Shown here piece by piece: positions 29,356 to 64,000 of a stretch of DNA of 64,000 nt. The position numbers and the translations under genes were made by a program. The notes beneath the pieces are model-generated. The model made no database searches and was not told the origin of the DNA. It saw only the letters and a program-made list of their open reading frames with translations. Every line of letters begins with the position of its first letter. Position 1 is the stretch's first letter. The stretch comes from Viridothelium virens (lineage: Eukaryota; Ascomycota; Dothideomycetes; Trypetheliales; Trypetheliaceae): contig ML991781.1 of NCBI GenBank assembly GCA_010094025.1, positions 1-64,000 of the forward strand, given 5' to 3'.

Positions 29356-30664
29356 TTCATTACTACAACGGGGGCTTGCGATGAACTTTCTCTACTGAAG
29401 CCTAGGGTTTTCTTGGACGGTGTACTTGGCGAGCATGCATTCATTCATTCGTTCGTTCAGCATCCGAAGCGTTGACGGCATCATCTGAGAGAAAAGTTGA
29501 TGGATATGTTGCGGAATTGTTTTAATAGAGCCAGGGCAGGCTTGACTACTTTCGTTAATGTGCTATGATACCACTTGGGTGGTTGCTTTTTTTTCCTGGG
29601 GTTCATCGTACTTCTTTTCAGTATCTAACGAGCAATGTCATGATATCTAACCTTAAACAAATGCTTGGTATTCTCTACATGATAGTTTGTTCGCGACAGT
29701 TGGTACCGAGTGACATCGTACCGACCCGCCCCATCTGCAACGACTGGGGTCTGAAGCGTCCGGATTTCCTCTCTCCCGCGATCGCTAGTTTCGCCTGCAA
29801 TGGCCCTCTAATCTAACGGAAACAGAACCTCAGAATCCTTGCAACAAACTGTCTACCGGCGGGAATGAACAGGACCTCAGTTCTGAACATGTTCTGCGCC
29901 GGAGACCCTGGTCCTGGGTTACGCTTACATTCTGTTACTAGACAGCCTTCCCTTCTTAGATGCTCTTAGATAAGGGAGATGTCACTGCAGGGTCTGACAG
30001 CCACGGCAGCTAAAACATGGGAACTTCGAAACTTTGAAGGAGATGATCTTGCTTGTACTTCTGTCTCACGCGTCACTAGTGACGGAAAGCTGCTATCCGC
30101 GGGAATATCGATAGAGATGCGCGGCATGCATTGGAGCTTACGTACTTGCCTTATCGTCATCGATGGAGAACAGAGCTGTCACGGAAACGCCGTTCCATCC
30201 TTCACTCATGGACAAGGAGGTTCTTGGCAACGATAATATCTCGTTGCTCCTGCCAAGAACGAGTCAATCGCTGTAGGCTCCATCGATGGGTACAAAACGA
30301 TATCTGTCTCCAACATATTCTCTGGAATTCTTCTATCCGTCAATGTGGTTGCTTTTCCCGCATCCGGAGACGGGACGGCAATACGCGTCTGGGAATACCA
30401 ATCACCCAGCTATCCATCTTCCTTGTCTGACCGCGCTCGTGATGAATCGGGAAGCTCACTCAAGCATGAAGTCTACAGTTGGAGAGCTGGAGCAGGTAAT
30501 GGAGCTAAAAAGTCTATGATTACCGAAGAGATTAAGCTTTCCAGCGACTCTATATTGGGAAGAGATGGTAAACGAAGGGAAGTTTTTCAGGTGATAGCGT
30601 TAGACAACCTGGTGACAAGGTGCAACTGTCATATTCGAATTCTCTTTGGACATGAAAATAGATA
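29356..30664. other. intergenic with decayed gene
   Basis: 3' region of the SANT gene followed by a probable relic of a WD40-like gene (29970-30590) and family B copy B1. No intact gene. Confidence 0.45.
29970..30590 (+). pseudogene. remnant of a WD40-like beta-propeller gene
   Basis: Separate plus-strand frames read LTATAAKTWELRNFEGDDLAC and SVSRVTSDGKLLSAG near 29980-30100, ESIAVGSIDGYKTISVSNI near 30255-30315, and VVAFPASGDGTAIRVWEY near 30345-30400. These are WD40-type strands (SxDGxxI.VW). They are not in one frame and no good introns connect them, so this looks like a decayed host gene, perhaps of the NACHT-WD40 type. Confidence 0.45.
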
Positions 30665-30749
30665 CAGTCGAGCGAAAAAAGTGTCCGCTCGCTGGCGTGG
30701 AATAATTGCTGGGGGTTGCCTGGACACTTGTGTCCTAATAGAGGTACTG
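30665..30749 (-). mobile_element. family B mini-MITE, copy B1
   Basis: 85 bp with TA on both sides (30663-30664 and 30750-30751) and CAGT/ACTG ends. It contains the core gtgtccgctcgctggcgtgg, then aattgctgggggttgcc and tggacact, in reverse orientation to the other copies. It touches the stop codon of the phosphatase-like gene. Confidence 0.85.
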
Positions 30750-32731: not shown

Positions 32732-33223
32732 TACGATTTATTTAGGAACTGTCATGCATCACCTCCGCTTGTATCTATGTACCTTAAATACGATAGTCGT
32801 AATTCGATTTTCTACGTCGCGTGCGGCGTCACGGTGGAGCCACTACCTGATGGAACAGGATTTCCCTTCAAAGTTGGACATCTCAGATCTTGCAAACCTT
32901 TGCTAAAGCGAGCGCGAAATCATTGAAAGGATTTGGCATTTGTGAGGCGCCTCACAATCAGGAGCTCGAGAGGCGCTGAACATCGAACTCACGTGAAAAT
33001 TCGAGGCTGAGTTGCGTTGCCAGAAAATCAATTGGAGCGTGTTTTTGATTCTTGCCCATTCGGAACGCTTATCAAAAACTCGGACGAATTGACTTTTCCC
33101 AGGCGAATTTACAATCCATTGTCGTCAGTACTTCGGAAAAATGGTAAAGGAACCTGGTGAGAGTCGAGGGACGAGTTGGGAGGGGGATAGCCGACGTATA
33201 CATGTAGAAATTGACCGTGAATA

Positions 33224-33302
33224 CAGTAGTGGGACAAAAGTGTCTAGGCAACCCCCAGCAATTTTTCCGCGCCAGCGAGCGGACACTTTTTTCGGATGAC
33301 TG
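33224..33302 (+). mobile_element. family B mini-MITE, copy B2
   Basis: 79 bp with CAGT/ACTG ends and TA flanks at 33222-33223 and 33303-33304. Core: gggacaaaagtgtc, gcaacccccagcaatttttccgc, gccagcgagcggacact. Intergenic, 3' of the eL34 gene. Confidence 0.85.
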
Positions 33303-33510
33303 TAGACGTGGCTATCAGCAATGAATACCAGAAATGCCACGAGACCAGAACCGTGCAGCAAGATCGAGCGTTAGAAACCAAGACATGTCATTCCTGGTGA
33401 TTTGTAGCAAGTTGCTAGATACAAGCTACATGAAATTGCCCAGGCCTCCGTACACCGAAAAAAAGTATCGTCAGGAACTGAATGTCCGCCTCCATGGCCC
33501 AATCCATAGT

Positions 33511-34452: not shown

Positions 34453-37400
34453 ATGGCTCCCCTTCCTCCTCCGCCTCCCCCAGGCTGGGCCCCCCCTCCT
34501 CCTCCTGGCGCACCTCCTGGAATGTCTGGCGCTCCCCCTCCCCCAGGCTACCGTCCTCCAACTGATCCTCAAATCGCCAAATTCGCTGCTAAAAAGAAAG
34601 AATGGCTGCGCTCGCAACGGCAACGCTTCGGCGAGAAGCGAAAGGGCGGATTTGTAGAGACGCAGAAGGCAGACATGCCGCCGGAGCATCTTCGCAAGAT
34701 TGTCAAAGATATTGGGGATGTGAGCCAGAAAAAATTCAGTAGCGATAAGAGAAGCTATCTCGGCGCACTGAAATTCATGCCACATGCGGTACTAAAGCTT
34801 CTGGAAAACATGCCGATGCCGTGGGAAAGTGCGCGAGAGGTCAAGGTACTGTATCATGTGAATGGGTGCCTGACGCTCGTGAATGAGGTACCCAGGGTTA
34901 TCGAGCCCGTCTTCCATGCGCAGTGGGCTACGATGTGGGTATGCATGCGGAGAGAAAAGAGCGACAGGAGGCATTTCAAGAGGATGCGATTCCCACCATT
35001 TGATGATGAAGAACCTCCGCTGTCTTGGTCGGAGAATATCGAGGATGTGGAACCCTTGGAACCAATTCAGATGGAACTGGATGAGAATGAAGACGGTCCA
35101 GTCGTTGAATGGTTCTATGAGCATCGACCGCTGCTGGATTCTTCTCACGTCAATGGCCCTAGCTACAAGCTATGGAATCTGACGTTGCCACAGATGGCCA
35201 CGCTATATCGGCTAAGTCATCAGCTTCTAAGCGATCTGGTGGACAGAAATTATTTTCATATGTTTGACCTTCCAAGCTTCATGACTGCCAAGTCATTAAA
35301 CGTTGCGATACCCGGCGGACCGCGCTTCGAGCCTCTCTACAAAGATGTCGATCCGAACGATGAAGACTTCGGCGAATTCAACGCTATCGACCGCATAATC
35401 TTCCGCGCACCTATCCGAACCGAATACCGCGTCTCTTTCCCTTTCTTGTATAATTCAATGCCCAGGAGTGTCAAGGTTTCGTGGTACTCCTATCCACAAA
35501 TCGTCTACGTTCGCGTGGAAGACCCTAGCCTTCCGGCTTTCTATTTCGACCCTGTAATTAATCCCATTTCTTCCCGCTCTGTCGCTCCGAAGAATATCAC
35601 GATTAGCCATGAAGACGAGGTCTTTGGCCATGGAAACATGGAAGACGATGAGTTTGAACTTCCAGGCCAGGTTCAGCCATTCCTTGCAGGCGAGGAGCTT
35701 TACACCGAGGATACTGCGTCTGCGATTGCGCTTTGGTGGGCTCCTTATCCGTTCGACAGGCGTTCTGGTCGCATGATACGTGCGCAAGATGTGCCTCTGG
35801 TCAAGCAGTGGTATCTCGAGCATGTTCCACAAGGCCAGCCGGTGAAGGTGCGAGTGTCGTACCAGAAGCTGCTCAAGTCATATGTCCTAAATGAACTGCA
35901 CTCAAAGCCGCCCAAGGACTTGAACAAACAAAATCTCATGCGCTCCTTGAGAGGCACGAAATTCTTCCAGCAGACGACTATTGATTGGGTCGAAGCTGGT
36001 TTACAAGTTTGTCGGCAAGGGTTCAATATGTTGAACCTTCTCATTCATCGCAAGAACCTAACGTACCTCCATCTGGACTACAATTTCAACCTAAAGCCCA
36101 TCAAGACTTTGACAACGAAGGAACGGAAGAAGTCACGTTTCGGAAATGCATTCCATTTGATGCGGGAAATCCTGCGATTGACCAAGCTTATCGTGGATGC
36201 TCAAGTTCAGTATCGTCTGGGCAACATTGATGCGTTCCAACTTGCAGACGGCATTCACTATGCCTTCAATCACGTCGGCCAGCTTACTGGTATGTACCGC
36301 TACAAGTACAAACTCATGCATCAAATCCGGTCCTGCAAGGATTTGAAGCATCTCATCTACTATCGCTTCAACTCCGGCCCTGTCGGTAAGGGTCCTGGCT
36401 GTGGCTTCTGGGCACCTGCTTGGCGTGTGTGGCTCTTCTTCATGCGTGGTATCATCCCGCTTCTGGAACGATGGCTGGGCAACCTGTTATCTCGTCAATT
36501 CGAAGGTCGTCATTCCAAGGGTGTTGCGAAGACAGTCACGAAGCAACGTGTTGAGTCCCACTTTGATCTCGAGCTCCGGGCTTCAGTCATGGCAGACTTG
36601 ATGGACATGATGCCTGAAGGTGTCAAGCAGAATAAAGTAAACACCGTCTTACAGCACCTTTCCGAGGCATGGCGATGCTGGAAGTCAAACATTCCTTGGA
36701 AGGTACCTGGGTTGCCTGCACCAATTGAAAACATTATCTTGCGCTATGTCAAGAGCAAAGCTGATTGGTGGATCTCTGTCGCACATTACAACCGCGAACG
36801 GATTCGGAGAGGTGCAACGGTGGACAAGACGGTCGCAAAGAAGAATCTTGGCCGTTTGACGCGACTGTGGCTGAAGGCCGAGCAAGAACGTCAACACAAT
36901 TACATGAAGGATGGCCCATATGTCTCTTCCGAAGAAGCTGTCGCCATTTATACCACGACTGTCCACTGGCTTGAATCACGACAATTTCAGCCTATCCCCT
37001 TCCCCAGCGTCTCCTACAAGCATGATACTAAGATCCTGATCCTTGCTCTTGAGCGTCTTCGCGAAGCATACTCCGTCAAGGGTCGATTGAATCAAAGTCA
37101 ACGTGAGGAATTGGCACTCATTGAACAAGCATATGACTCTCCGGGCACCACGCTCGCACGAATCAAGCGTTTCCTACTTACGCAGCGTGCTTTCAAGGAA
37201 GTCGGCATTGACATGAATGACAACTATAGCAGTATCAATCCGGTCTACGATATTGAGCCAATAGAGAAAATTACGGATGCCTACCTTGACCAATACCTAT
37301 GGTACCAAGCTGATCAGCGCCACCTCTTTCCTGCTTGGATCAAGCCTTCCGATTCCGAAGTACCTCCTCTTCTCACATACAAGTGGGCACAGGGCATCAA

Positions 37401-38424
37401 CAACCTTGGCAAAGTTTGGGAGACAGCTGACGGAGAATGCAATGTCATGATTGAGACGCAACTATCCAAGGTGTATGAGAAGATTGATCTGACACTTCTT
37501 CAACGTCTTCTCCGTCTCATTATGGATCACAATTTGGCAGACTACATTACAGCAAAGAACAATGTTCAACTCAATTACAAGGACATGAATCATACCAACG
37601 GCTACGGGATGATCCGCGGTCTGCAATTCTCCGGCTTTGTCTTCCAATATTATGGCTTGGTCATCGATCTACTGCTGCTCGGCTTGCAACGTGCTTCCGA
37701 GATTGCCGGTCCTCCGAAGAGTCCAAATGATTTCCTGCAGTTCCGAGACCGTGAGACGGAGAGCAAGCATCCTATTCGCCTCTACACAAGATACATCGAT
37801 CGCATCTGGGTGTTCTTCCGGTTCACTGCTGATGAGTCGAGAGACCTTATTCAGCGTTTCCTCACCGAACAGCCCGATCCAAATTTCGAGAATGTCATTG
37901 GATACCGCAACAAGAAGTGCTGGCCGCGCGATTCTAGGATGCGCTTGATGAGACACGATGTCAATCTTGGTCGGGCAGTCTTCTGGGATCTAAAAAACCG
38001 GTTGCCACGGTCTGTAACAACCATCGAATGGGATGATACTTTTGCCAGCGTTTATAGCCGTGACAATCCCAACCTCCTGTTCTCTATGTCTGGTTTCGAA
38101 GTTCGCATTCTGCCAAAGATTCGCAATCAAAACGACGAATTTCCCGTCAAGGATAGTGTATGGTCACTCGTGGACAGCACGACCAAGGAGCGTACTGCGC
38201 ACGCCTTCTTACAAGTGACGGAGGAAGACATCCAAAAATTCAACAATCGGATCCGACAGATCCTCATGTCTTCTGGGTCCACGACATTCACCAAGATTGC
38301 TAACAAATGGAACACAAGTCTGATCGCGTTGTTCACATATTATCGTGAGGCTGCCGTTTCAACCGTCAACTTATTGGATACCATTGTGAAGTGCGAGACG
38401 AAGATACAGACTCGTGTCAAGATT

Positions 38425-38456
<32 letters not shown>

Positions 38457-41400
38457 GCCAGCCGTCTTCTATACACCAAAAGAGCTTGGTGGTCTTGGTA
38501 TGATCTCAGGCTCCCACATTCTCATTCCAACAAGCGACAAGCGTTGGTCCAAACAGACCGATACCGGTGTCACGCATTACCGTGCAGGCATGTCTCATGA
38601 CGAGGAGACCCTCATACCAAATATTTTCCGCTACATCATTCCCTGGGAGGCCGAGTTCATCGACTCTCAACGTGTGTGGACAGAATATTCTCAGAAGCGG
38701 CTAGAAGCTAACCAGCAGAATCGACGCCTTACCCTTGAGGATCTTGAGGATAGTTGGGATCGTGGTCTTCCGCGTATCAATACGTTGTTTCAAAAAGATC
38801 GCAGCACGCTCAGCTTCGACAAAGGATTCCGTGCTCGCACTGAGTTCAAGACATATCAGCATATGAAGAGCAATCCTTTCTGGTGGACCAGTCAGCGTCA
38901 TGATGGCAAGCTCTGGAACCTCAACGCTTACCGTACCGATGTCATTCAAGCTCTTGGTGGTGTAGAAACCATCCTCGAGCACACCTTATTCAAGGCGACA
39001 GCTTTTCCGTCCTGGGAGGGTCTCTTTTGGGAAAAAGCCAGCGGTTTTGAAGGTATGGAAACCATATTTGGACAAATATGTCCGGGCACTCCCCAGCAAA
39101 TTTCACACGCCAGCGAGCGGACACTTTTTGCATGACTGTATTGTCTGATATCAGAGTCCGGGCAACCCCCAGCAATTTTTTCCCGCGTCATCCCCAGCAA
39201 TTTTTCCGCTTCAGCGAGCAGACACTTTTTTTCGCTTAACTGTATTGTCTAATGAAGCTAACATTCGTTCAGAGTCTATGAAATTCAAGAAGCTCACCAA
39301 TGCCCAACGATCTGGTCTCAATCAGATCCCGAACCGACGTTTCACGCTCTGGTGGTCCCCAACGATCAATCGCGCCAATGTCTACGTTGGTTTCCAGGTT
39401 CAGCTTGATTTGACAGGCATCTTTTTGCACGGCAAGATCCCAACTCTGAAGATTTCACTCATTCAGATCTTCCGAGCTCACTTGTGGCAAAAGATTCACG
39501 AGTCCGTTGTCATGGATCTGTGTCAAGTGTTTGATCAGGAGTTGGAGGCCTTGGGCATTGAGACGGTGCAGAAGGAGACCATCCATCCTAGGAAGTCGTA
39601 CAAGATGAATAGCTCTTGCGCTGACATCTTGCTCTTCGCTAGTCACAAATGGAGTGTGTCAACACCCTCTTTACTCTACGACACCAAGGACAACATGGGT
39701 GCGAACACGACGAACAAATTCTGGATTGATGTGCAGCTCCGGTATGGTGACTACGACTCGCATGATATTGAAAGATATACTCGCGCCAAGTTCATGGACT
39801 ACACACAAGACAGCATGAGCATTTATCCTTCTGCTACCGGTCTTATGATTGGCATTGATCTTGCTTATAATCTCTATTCTGCCTACGGAATGTATTTTCC
39901 TGGTCTGAAGCAGTTGGTTCAGCAAGCAATGGCAAAGATCATGAAGGCAAATCCTGCGCTGTATGTTTTGCGTGAGCGTATTCGAAAGGGTCTTCAGCTG
40001 TACGCTTCGGAGAGCAACCAGGAATTCTTGAACTCGCAGAATTATTCTGAGCTTTTCAGCAATCAGATCCAGCTTTTCATCGACGATACCAACGTTTATC
40101 GCGTGACCATTCACAAGACATTTGAAGGCAACTTGACGACGAAGCCAATCAATGGCGCAATCTTCATTTTCAACCCACGCACAGGTCAATTGTTCCTTAA
40201 GATTATCCACACAAGCGTCTGGGCGGGACAAAAGCGTCTTGGTCAACTAGCAAAATGGAAGACTGCAGAAGAGGTCGCTGCACTGATCCGATCCCTACCC
40301 GTAGAAGAACAGCCCAAGCAACTCATCGTTACTCGAAAGGGTCTATTGGATCCTCTTGAAGTTCATCTCCTTGACTTCCCGAACATTTCAATCCGTGCCT
40401 CCGAGCTGCAGCTACCCTTCCAAGCTGCCATGAAAGTCGAGAAGCTTGGTGATCTGATCCTGCGTGCGACTGAGCCACAGATGGTCCTTCTCAACCTTTA
40501 CGACGAATGGACGAAGACAATCTCGTCCTACACCTGCTTCTCCCGCCTCATCCTCATCCTACGCGCCCTGCATGTCAATCAAGACAAGACGAAACTCATT
40601 CTCCGACCGGACAAGACTGTCATTACGCAGGAGCATCATATCTGGCCTACTTTGTCGGACGAAGACTGGATCAAAGTCGAATTGCAGCTCCGCGATCTCA
40701 TTCTCAATGACTATGGCAAGCGAAATAATGTCACCACAAGTTCTCTTACTCAGTCTGAAGTTCGCGATATTATCCTTGGTATGGAAATATCAGCTCCGTC
40801 GATGCAGCGTCAACAGGCTGCAGAGATCGAAAAACAGCAACAAGAGCAACAGCAACTCACTGCAGTCACGACAAAGACGCAGAACGTCCATGGCGAAGAT
40901 ATCATCGTGACCACGACGTCACAGTTCGAGCAGCAAACGTTTGCATCCAAGACGGAATGGCGCTCGCGCGCCCTCGCCACTTCAAACCTCCGTACCCGAG
41001 CCAATAATATCTATATCTCCTCTGACGACCTTAACGAGAGCGACGATAGCTTCACATACATTATGCCCAAGAATATCCTCCGTCGCTTCATCACCATCGC
41101 GGACCTTCGCGTCCAGGTAGCCGGTTACCTCTACGGCTCCAGTCCCAAGGACGCAAAACAGATCAAAGAAGTCAAATGCATTGTCATGGTTCCCCAACTC
41201 GGCTCAACAACCTCCGTCTCCCTACCGCATCAGCTCCCTCTCAGCACCAACAACAACGAGTTCCTCCGCGACCTCGAGCCTCTCGGCTGGATCCACACAC
41301 TTGCTGGCTCCGAGCCCCACGCCCTCGGCGCCCCCGACGTGACGCAACACGCCAAACTGATGAACCGCCACTCCTCCTGGGACCGGCAAACCGTCACCAT

Positions 41401-41788
41401 GACCGTCTCCTTCACCCCCGGCTCCGTCAGCCTTTCCGCCTTCGCCCTCACGCCGCACGGCTACAAGTGGGGCGCCGAGAACCGCGACACCTCCTCCACC
41501 GACCCGCCCGGCTTCAATCCCGGCGCCTACTCCGAGAAGGCGCAGCTGCTGCTCAGCGATCGGATCCGCGGCTTCTTCCTCACGCCTGTCGAGGACGGCC
41601 GGTGGAACTACGCGTGGTTGGGTGCGGCGTTTGGGAATTTTGCGAGGGAGGGCGGTGGTGGGGATAAAGTGGAGGTGGCGCTGGATACGCCGAAGAGATA
41701 TTATGATGAGGGGCATCGGCCAGTGCACTTTAGGAATTTTGCGGAGTTGGAGGATGTCTGGGTGGATCGGAGTGACAACTTTGAGTGA
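34453..41788 (+). CDS. PRP8: pre-mRNA-splicing factor PRP8
   Basis: Two exons, 34453-39052 and 39273-41788, give 2371 residues. The protein is the central U5 snRNP scaffold that holds the spliceosome's catalytic RNA core. The Pro-rich start (about 1-40) is followed by [29 protein letters not shown] and [12 protein letters not shown], then the large reverse-transcriptase-like, linker and endonuclease-like regions, RNase H-like region and C-terminal JAB1/MPN domain (about 2130-2340). The length and all blocks are as expected. The single 220-nt intron (39053-39272; GTATGG, branch GCTAAC, CAG) falls inside the second Glu codon of GFEESMKFKK and is filled by family B repeats. The protein is uninterrupted once spliced. 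No intein is present. Confidence 0.97.
39055..39138 (+). mobile_element. family B mini-MITE B3a inside the PRP8 intron
   Basis: Begins at the 5' splice site with a decayed left end (ggacaaatatgtccgggc), then ccccagcaaatttcacacgccagcgagcggacact and an intact right end catgactg followed by TA (39139-39140). It makes up the first 40% of the 220-nt PRP8 intron. Confidence 0.75.
39154..39242 (+). mobile_element. family B mini-MITE B3b inside the PRP8 intron
   Basis: A second, left-truncated unit beginning gtccgggcaacccccagc, with an internal repeat of ccccagcaattttt, and ending cttaactg plus TA. Both B3a and B3b are followed by the same TATTGTCT, so B3b probably arose by duplication of B3a with its flank and not by a new insertion. 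30 bp of ordinary intron with the branch site follow. Confidence 0.7.
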
Positions 41789-46337: not shown

Positions 46338-46421
46338 TCAGTACTCCGTACCAGGACAAAAGTGTTCGGGCAACCCCCAGCAATTTTGCGGTATCAACGG
46401 GCGGACACTTTTCGCATAACT
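46338..46421 (+). mobile_element. family B mini-MITE, copy B4
   Basis: 84 bp, cagtactccgtacc at the left and cataactg at the right. The core is ggacaaaagtgttcgggcaacccccagc and gggcggacact. TA follows the right end; the left flank is TT. It lies between the ankyrin gene promoter and the 3' end of the histone deacetylase gene. Confidence 0.8.
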
Positions 46422-46703
46422 GTACAATATGAAGCAAGAGATTATGGAGTGTTTTTCTACTGTTATCTTATAACCTGTATCACCCGATAGAATCCTGCTA
46501 AGTTATAAGACAAGCGGTAGTCAGCGTGAATCTTGGTGTTGCTCCGTGAGTTAGGATCTGAAAGGGGTATCATCAACAAGACGGAGTAGTATTCTCAAAT
46601 CCACCAATCCGAACGCCGTCTTTGTTCCCATTCCAGCCATGTGACCCATATCAATCGCCTTTATTCATACTTCCCGACTTGTGTCCATCTAAGACACGTC
46701 TTC

Positions 46704-63889: not shown

Positions 63890-63968
63890 CAGTACTAGCA
63901 TAAAAGTGTCCGGGCAACCCTCAGCAATTTTCTCGCGCCAGCGAACTGACACCTTTTTCGCATGACTG
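63890..63968 (+). mobile_element. family B mini-MITE, copy B5
   Basis: 79 bp from cagtactagcataaaagtgtcc to cgcatgactg. The core has ggcaaccctcagcaattttctcgc and gccagcgaactgacacc. Flanks are TG/TG instead of TA, so the target site has mutated. More diverged than B2. Confidence 0.8.
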
Positions 63969-64000
63969 TGCTTCACCACTAGGATCCAGTGTACGAAGCT

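What the first reader, a model, noticed from the sequence alone, without database searches (positions are those of the whole stretch)
39053..39272. PRP8's only intron is packed with mini-MITEs and lies next to the presumed intein hot spot
Seen: a 220-nt GT-AG intron splits the second Glu codon of GFEE/SMKFKK, and about 80% of it is two family B units. Known: many fungi carry a Prp8 intein at one highly conserved site. From memory it lies at or within a codon or two of this place; that must be checked. Inference: a conserved locus of a splicing factor accepts two different self-removing insert types at almost the same spot. This could be coincidence, an ancestral intron, or an insertion-prone site tolerant because the product is removed before the protein acts.
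Basis: partly seen in the sequence, partly recalled or inferred. Interest (0 to 1): 0.75.

Follow-up and report, generated by a model that had tools for sequence, protein, structure and literature searches.

The report
Transposon-filled PRP8 intron beside intein site
A lichen fungus has one intron in its core splicing gene PRP8, mostly filled by a tiny transposon array and 13 bases from where other fungi carry a self-removing protein insert; introns turn up at this spot in other fungi too, so the transposon looks like a passenger and not the maker of the intron.

Summary
The window is from Viridothelium virens or a near-identical Trypetheliales lichen fungus: the joined PRP8 is 100% identical over 2371 residues to that species' deposited protein. 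PRP8 has one coding intron, 39053-39272, phase 1, splitting the second Glu of GFEESMKF. About 74-84% of it is a TA-flanked MITE: two tandem units plus a remnant of a further linker.

The Prp8-a intein site is [10 protein letters not shown], 13 nt upstream of the intron. [quoted passage not shown]

Unspliced environmental PRP8 ORFs imply nine intron positions, in all three phases, between -3 and +18 nt of the intein point. Two or three of these ORFs, from other lineages, imply this exact position and phase without a convincing MITE match. So the MITE most likely entered an existing intron.

Inteins and site introns do not exclude each other (3 of 20 intein-bearing, 16 of 66 intein-free ORFs; p = 0.54). 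A second intron cluster lies about 90 nt further on, so intein-driven intron gain is unproven. This is a new member of a known kind; the intron hot spot at the intein site is the part worth pursuing.

The parts
34453..39052 (+). PRP8 exon 1 (codons 1-1533 and the first base of codon 1534)
39039..39040 (+). empty Prp8-a intein insertion point, between GCC (Ala1529) and AGC (Ser1530)
   Evidence: extein flanks FWEKA / SGFE in a passage of PMC3141402; intein-bearing proteins read HN|SGFE and FWE[KR]A|CLA, recounted; distance computed
39053..39272 (+). phase-1 spliceosomal intron, 220 nt, GTATGG...CAG
39053..39058 (+). 5' splice site GTATGG, outside the MITE
39061..39140 (+). MITE family B unit 1; left terminal repeat degraded (match from 39070), right end ...TGACTGTA
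39141..39153 (+). linker TTGTCTGATATCA, typical of the tandem form of the family
39154..39244 (+). MITE family B unit 2, no left terminal repeat, with an internal partial duplication (CCCCAGCAATTTTT twice)
39245..39253 (+). TTGTCTAAT, remnant of a further linker; the array is cut off here
   Evidence: same nine bases as a linker at C7
39257..39262 (+). GCTAAC, branch-site-like sequence outside the MITE
   Evidence: motif recalled as the fungal branch consensus
39270..39272 (+). 3' splice site CAG
39273..41788 (+). PRP8 exon 2 (rest of codon 1534 to the stop)
30663..30735 (-). family B copy outside PRP8
33222..33304 (+). family B full-length copy, TACAGT...ACTGTA
46354..46424 (+). family B copy
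63890..63969 (+). family B copy

Best explanation
An ordinary U2-type spliceosomal intron sits in a short stretch of PRP8 (codons 1528-1536) where other fungi also have introns. The stretch begins at the Prp8-a intein point. In this lineage a tandem array of a TA-targeting MITE landed inside that intron and was later trimmed. The spliceosome removes intron and MITE together, using a 5' splice site, branch site and 3' splice site that lie outside the MITE. Shown: gene structure, MITE content, distance to the intein point. Inferred from protein read-throughs: intron positions in other fungi, among them the same position and phase. Inferred only: that the intron is older than the MITE, that it is spliced in the cell, and why introns recur there (parallel gain or short shifts; the cause is unknown).
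For: Deposited protein identical to the spliced frame. Splice signals outside the units. Most full-length copies begin TA and end TA, while the exon junction reads AG|AG with no TA, so a direct insertion into the exon at this point is unlikely. By eye the copies' flanks share no splice-site pattern. Same position and phase (GFEG... read-through) in P0278 and P0314, probably P0174 from the 3' side. Nine inferred positions within 21 nt. PMC1508164 Tables 1 and 4 (sections 5 and 18 read) list an intron near the intein site in species of Aspergillus, Neosartorya, Botrytis, Sclerotinia, Phaeosphaeria, Chaetomium, Podospora and Cryptococcus. PMC4457414 (section 11 read) describes parallel intron gains within short windows in Dothideomycetes.
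Against: No DNA of a close relative could be read; positions elsewhere are inferred from codons. PMC1508164 also lists many species without the intron and does not give its position; 14 of 20 intein-bearing ORFs here end instead about 30 codons further on (LWW|SPT), so its intron may be that one in some species. Without the array only about 27-36 nt of intron remain, too short for a normal fungal intron (my knowledge), so original intron sequence must have been lost. At L017, L030, L035 and L038 same-strand ORFs lie on both sides of a copy, so intronic copies elsewhere are not excluded. P0278's inferred 5' splice site (GTCAR...) is unusual.
Confidence: 0.72

Rival explanations
1. The MITE array made the intron: it inserted in the exon and was spliced out at once, an introner-like gain that by parallel gain hit a place used by introns in other fungi.
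For: Most of the intron is MITE and only 27-36 nt are not. Introner-like gains inside windows that hold ordinary introns elsewhere are known in Dothideomycetes (PMC4457414).
Against: Splice signals lie outside the element. The element uses TA and the junction is AG|AG. The tandem arrays at C1 and C7 lie between ORFs by ORF map, and no copy in the 32 mapped loci was shown to be an intron, though four loci are unresolved.
Confidence: 0.15
2. The intein's homing endonuclease drove intron gain: breaks at empty intein sites were repaired with inserted DNA, and only spliceable inserts survived. Such introns would also split the recognition site without changing the protein.
For: Nine inferred intron positions lie within -3 to +18 nt of the insertion point. 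The protein there is almost invariant among the hits printed. PMC2814812 (abstract and passages) argues that conserved sites make immunity to the endonuclease hard to evolve.
Against: Introns and inteins co-occur: P0293, P0294 and P0320 carry both, and several intein-bearing species in PMC1508164 Table 1 have a nearby intron. No association: 3 of 20 against 16 of 66, Fisher p = 0.54. A second intron cluster about 90 nt away is as strong and is not an intein point of this study.
Confidence: 0.06
3. One ancestral intron at this place slid by 1-21 nt in different lineages, so the nine positions are one intron.
For: Tight clustering; +13, +14 and +15 differ by 1 nt.
Against: All three phases and spans up to 21 nt; positions differ within Pleosporales-like ORFs (P0248 +17; P0262, P0267, P0272 +4). 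PMC4457414 prefers parallel gain over sliding for its three cases.
Confidence: 0.15

Closest known systems
Introns near the Prp8-a intein site in Pezizomycotina and Tremellales (Butler et al. 2006, PMC1508164)
   Same: Spliceosomal intron just downstream of the same intein point, in species with and without the intein.
   Different: Introns listed in Table 1 are 51-65 bp, and 177 bp in A. nidulans; no transposon content is mentioned in the sections read; the exact position is not given in the tables.
Introner-like elements of Dothideomycetes (PMC4457414)
   Same: Dothideomycete intron rich in repeat sequence; intron positions within about 15 nt of positions used by other fungi.
   Different: Introners are themselves introns in many near-identical copies; here the repeat lies inside the intron and the splice sites are outside it.
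Tc1/mariner-type MITEs of fungi (superfamily recalled from the TA ends and CAGT termini)
   Same: About 82 bp, TA at both ends in most full-length copies, terminal repeat TACAGTACTA.../...TGACTGTA.
   Different: No autonomous partner was sought; a tandem form with a 13-nt linker exists at about five places.
Prp8-a inteins
   Same: Insert in the same stretch of PRP8, removed before the product acts.
   Different: Removed at protein level and mobile by homing; this gene has none at this point.

Membership tests
U2-type spliceosomal intron | GT...AG ends and removal restores a conserved reading frame | tested here: met
U2-type spliceosomal intron | branch-site-like sequence near the 3' end | tested here: met
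   GCTAAC at 39257-39262 before CAG at 39270-39272; consensus recalled
U2-type spliceosomal intron | removal seen in RNA | not testable with these tools
   no RNA reads; the deposited protein model agrees
Introner / introner-like element | the repeat itself carries the splice sites | tested here: not met
   splice signals outside the units
Introner / introner-like element | many genic copies that act as introns | tested here: inconclusive
   32 loci mapped by ORFs of at least 100 aa; none shown to be an intron, but L017, L030, L035 and L038 have same-strand ORFs on both sides
Tc1/mariner-type MITE | short, inverted ends, TA at both ends | tested here: met
   most full-length copies; some end otherwise
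Tc1/mariner-type MITE | autonomous transposase source with the same ends | not tested
   no transposase search was run
Prp8-a intein | in-frame intein coding sequence at [10 protein letters not shown] | tested here: not met
   window reads GCC AGC without insert

The most novel reading that the evidence does not exclude
The Prp8-a intein point is a spliceosomal-intron gain hot spot because intein homing endonucleases cut it: break repair supplied insert DNA, and introns that split the recognition sequence were kept because they make the allele immune to homing without changing an almost invariant protein.
Probability: 0.06. Interest if true: 0.85.

Novelty: new member of a known kind. Interest (0 to 1): 0.38.

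Why it matters
If the clustering holds in genomic DNA, PRP8 offers one small, nearly invariant stretch where inteins, spliceosomal introns at many positions and a MITE can be compared. That would be a direct test of whether selfish protein inserts shape intron positions. PMC2814812 found no preference of spliceosomal introns for conserved sites in the proteins it examined, and the word Prp8 does not occur in its main text.

Tried and rejected
Viral contigs gave no relative of this PRP8 stretch. Genome contigs gave one contig, L041, filed under a bacterial MAG, not followed further. RNA folding of the intron is no better than shuffles (z = +0.21). Rfam gave nothing at gathering scores. The promoter/terminator scan was not informative for a fungus.

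Mutual exclusion of intein and intron was considered and dropped. The Fisher value printed (p = 0.10) was run with 1 intein-bearing interrupted ORF; the tails show 3 (P0293, P0294, P0320), and one search gives p = 0.54.

Absence of an intron was not used as strong evidence: some read-through ORFs come from contigs of transcript size (for example P0031, P0033 and P0115) and may be spliced cDNA. The tree (87 rows, 528 columns, quick method, 38 of 76 inner branches open, fewest changes 17) is too weak to count gains and losses; it shows only that +4, +13 and +14 each occur in more than one part of the tree.

ORF starts at Met1536 (39 of 119) only say that the frame is broken upstream, since no Met lies between codons 1471 and 1536.

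Full report
What is there. PRP8 runs from 34453 to 41788 with one coding intron, 39053-39272, 220 nt, GTATGG...CAG, phase 1 in codon 1534. The joined 2371-aa protein equals P0011, 'putative pre-mRNA splicing factor [Viridothelium virens]', at 100% over 2371 residues. Among the 120 listed hits the next are a Trypethelium eluteriae MAG protein (P0007, 99.96% over 2348) and then P0014 (92.0%). The window is therefore from V. virens or very near kin (Dothideomycetes, Trypetheliales). G000 holds 30.72 Mb in 175 contigs.

The MITE. Single copies are about 82 bp, begin TACAGTACTAGGACAAAAGTGTCCGGG and end CGGACACTTTTTTCGCATGACTGTA in their commonest form; most full-length copies have TA at both ends. 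The core pattern has 62 matches genome-wide and none in the reversed control. Five of these lie in the 64-kb window, two of them in the PRP8 intron, against 0.13 expected from the genome density, with a slightly different pattern, found six. A tandem form, in which units are joined by a linker like TTGTCTGATATCA instead of a left terminal repeat, occurs at C1:624517-624837 (four units), C7:414174-414407 (three units), in one unit at C7 near 416.9-417.0 kb, perhaps at C95:79528, and in the PRP8 intron. In PRP8 there are two units, and the sequence after the second repeats the first nine bases of a C7 linker, so the array was probably longer and has been cut. The C1 array lies between ORFs and the C7 array has an ORF of at least 100 aa only on one side.

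The intein point. PMC3141402 (passages) gives the Penicillium chrysogenum extein flanks as FWEKA and SGFE. In the hits, 16 of 119 proteins (P0123-P0241) read HN|SGFE, and 19 of 82 (P0242-P0323) read FWE[KR]A|CLA. In this window that point is between bases 39039 and 39040, 13 nt before the intron. PMC6805012 (passages and section 6) places Prp8-a in the 1585 loop and counts seven intein sites a-g. In yeast numbering the +1 serine would be 1579 and the split Glu 1583, inferred from the equal-length match, whose yeast alignment was not printed. [quoted passage not shown] It does not state the exact position in what I read.

Introns of other fungi read from unspliced ORFs. I used environmental ORFs that appear to run into an intron. 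Relative to the intein point (0), frames break at: -3 (P0318), +3 (P0311), +4 (P0262, P0267, P0272, P0321; from the 3' side P0136, P0137, P0196), +10 (P0310), +13 (P0278, P0314; from the 3' side P0174), +14 (P0244, P0305, P0320; less surely P0261, P0299), +15 (P0303; from the 3' side P0162), +17 (P0248) and +18 (P0250, P0293, P0294). The window is +13. Each position is my reading of which codons allow a GT at the break; no DNA was seen. In the 86 unannotated ORFs of the listing (best 120 of 733 hits), 55 end before codon 2340: 19 at codons 1528-1536, 20 at codons 1559-1568, 16 elsewhere (my count from the histogram; some of the 16 may be contig ends). ORFs that end before about codon 1528 score lower and drop out of the list, so nothing can be said about introns upstream.

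Is the intron elsewhere free of the MITE? The read-through tails of P0278, P0314 and P0174, searched against the window's intron and one MITE copy (about 300 nt), gave best E-values of 0.13, 0.025 and 0.016; the window's own read-through gave 2e-18. I take this as no convincing match.

Relation to the intein. An intron at the site is inferred in 3 of 20 intein-bearing and 16 of 66 intein-free ORFs, Fisher p = 0.54: no sign of exclusion. 'No intron' may include spliced transcripts. Fourteen of the 20 intein-bearing ORFs end in the second cluster.

Independence. Nearest named kin differ: P0262, P0267 and P0272 (+4) and P0248 (+17) are Pleosporales-like, P0250 Lecanoromycetes-like, P0305 and P0299 on the Sordariomycetes side. 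On the tree, +13 falls in three places: the window, P0314 on the Sordariomycetes side, and P0278 elsewhere. Support is weak and I make no count of gains.

Mechanism. The intron should behave as any spliceosomal intron: the signals are outside the MITE, and the MITE is removed with it. A direct MITE insertion in the exon is unlikely, because the element uses TA and the junction is AG|AG. Against this, only 27-36 nt of the intron are not MITE, so original intron sequence must have been lost. Parallel gains within short windows are described for Dothideomycetes (PMC4457414, passages and section 11). PMC2814812 (abstract and passages) and PMC1635734 (passages) report that spliceosomal introns do not prefer conserved sites in the proteins they studied. 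[quoted passage not shown] My searches for a discussion were.

Verdict. The MITE is most likely a passenger in an intron at a place where fungal PRP8 introns recur. The intron hot spot is the lasting interest; a causal link to the intein is unproven.

Noticed in passing
PRP8 codons 1559-1568 (window 39347-39376): A second cluster of inferred intron positions in other fungi (LWW|SPT), including 14 of 20 intein-bearing ORFs.
   Followed up: partly
window 30663-63969; G000 C11 at 74.8 kb; C24 352-371 kb: Family B copies look locally clustered: five core matches in this window against 0.13 expected.
   Followed up: no
L032:1449-1529: A family B copy lies within the stop-to-stop frame that further on encodes RRM and ARID domains; it may be in the leader or an exon.
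   Followed up: partly
G000 C1:624517-624837: Four-unit tandem MITE array; linkers hold the palindrome CTGATATCAG.
   Followed up: no
L017, L030, L035, L038: Same-strand ORFs lie on both sides of a family B copy; whether these copies are intronic is open.
   Followed up: no
L041: A contig filed under a Rickettsiaceae MAG encodes a eukaryotic PRP8 (80% identity), probably contamination.
   Followed up: no
proteins P0157 and P0279: PRP8 proteins filed under Persea americana and Lupinus albus look fungal, possibly contaminants in plant assemblies.
   Followed up: no
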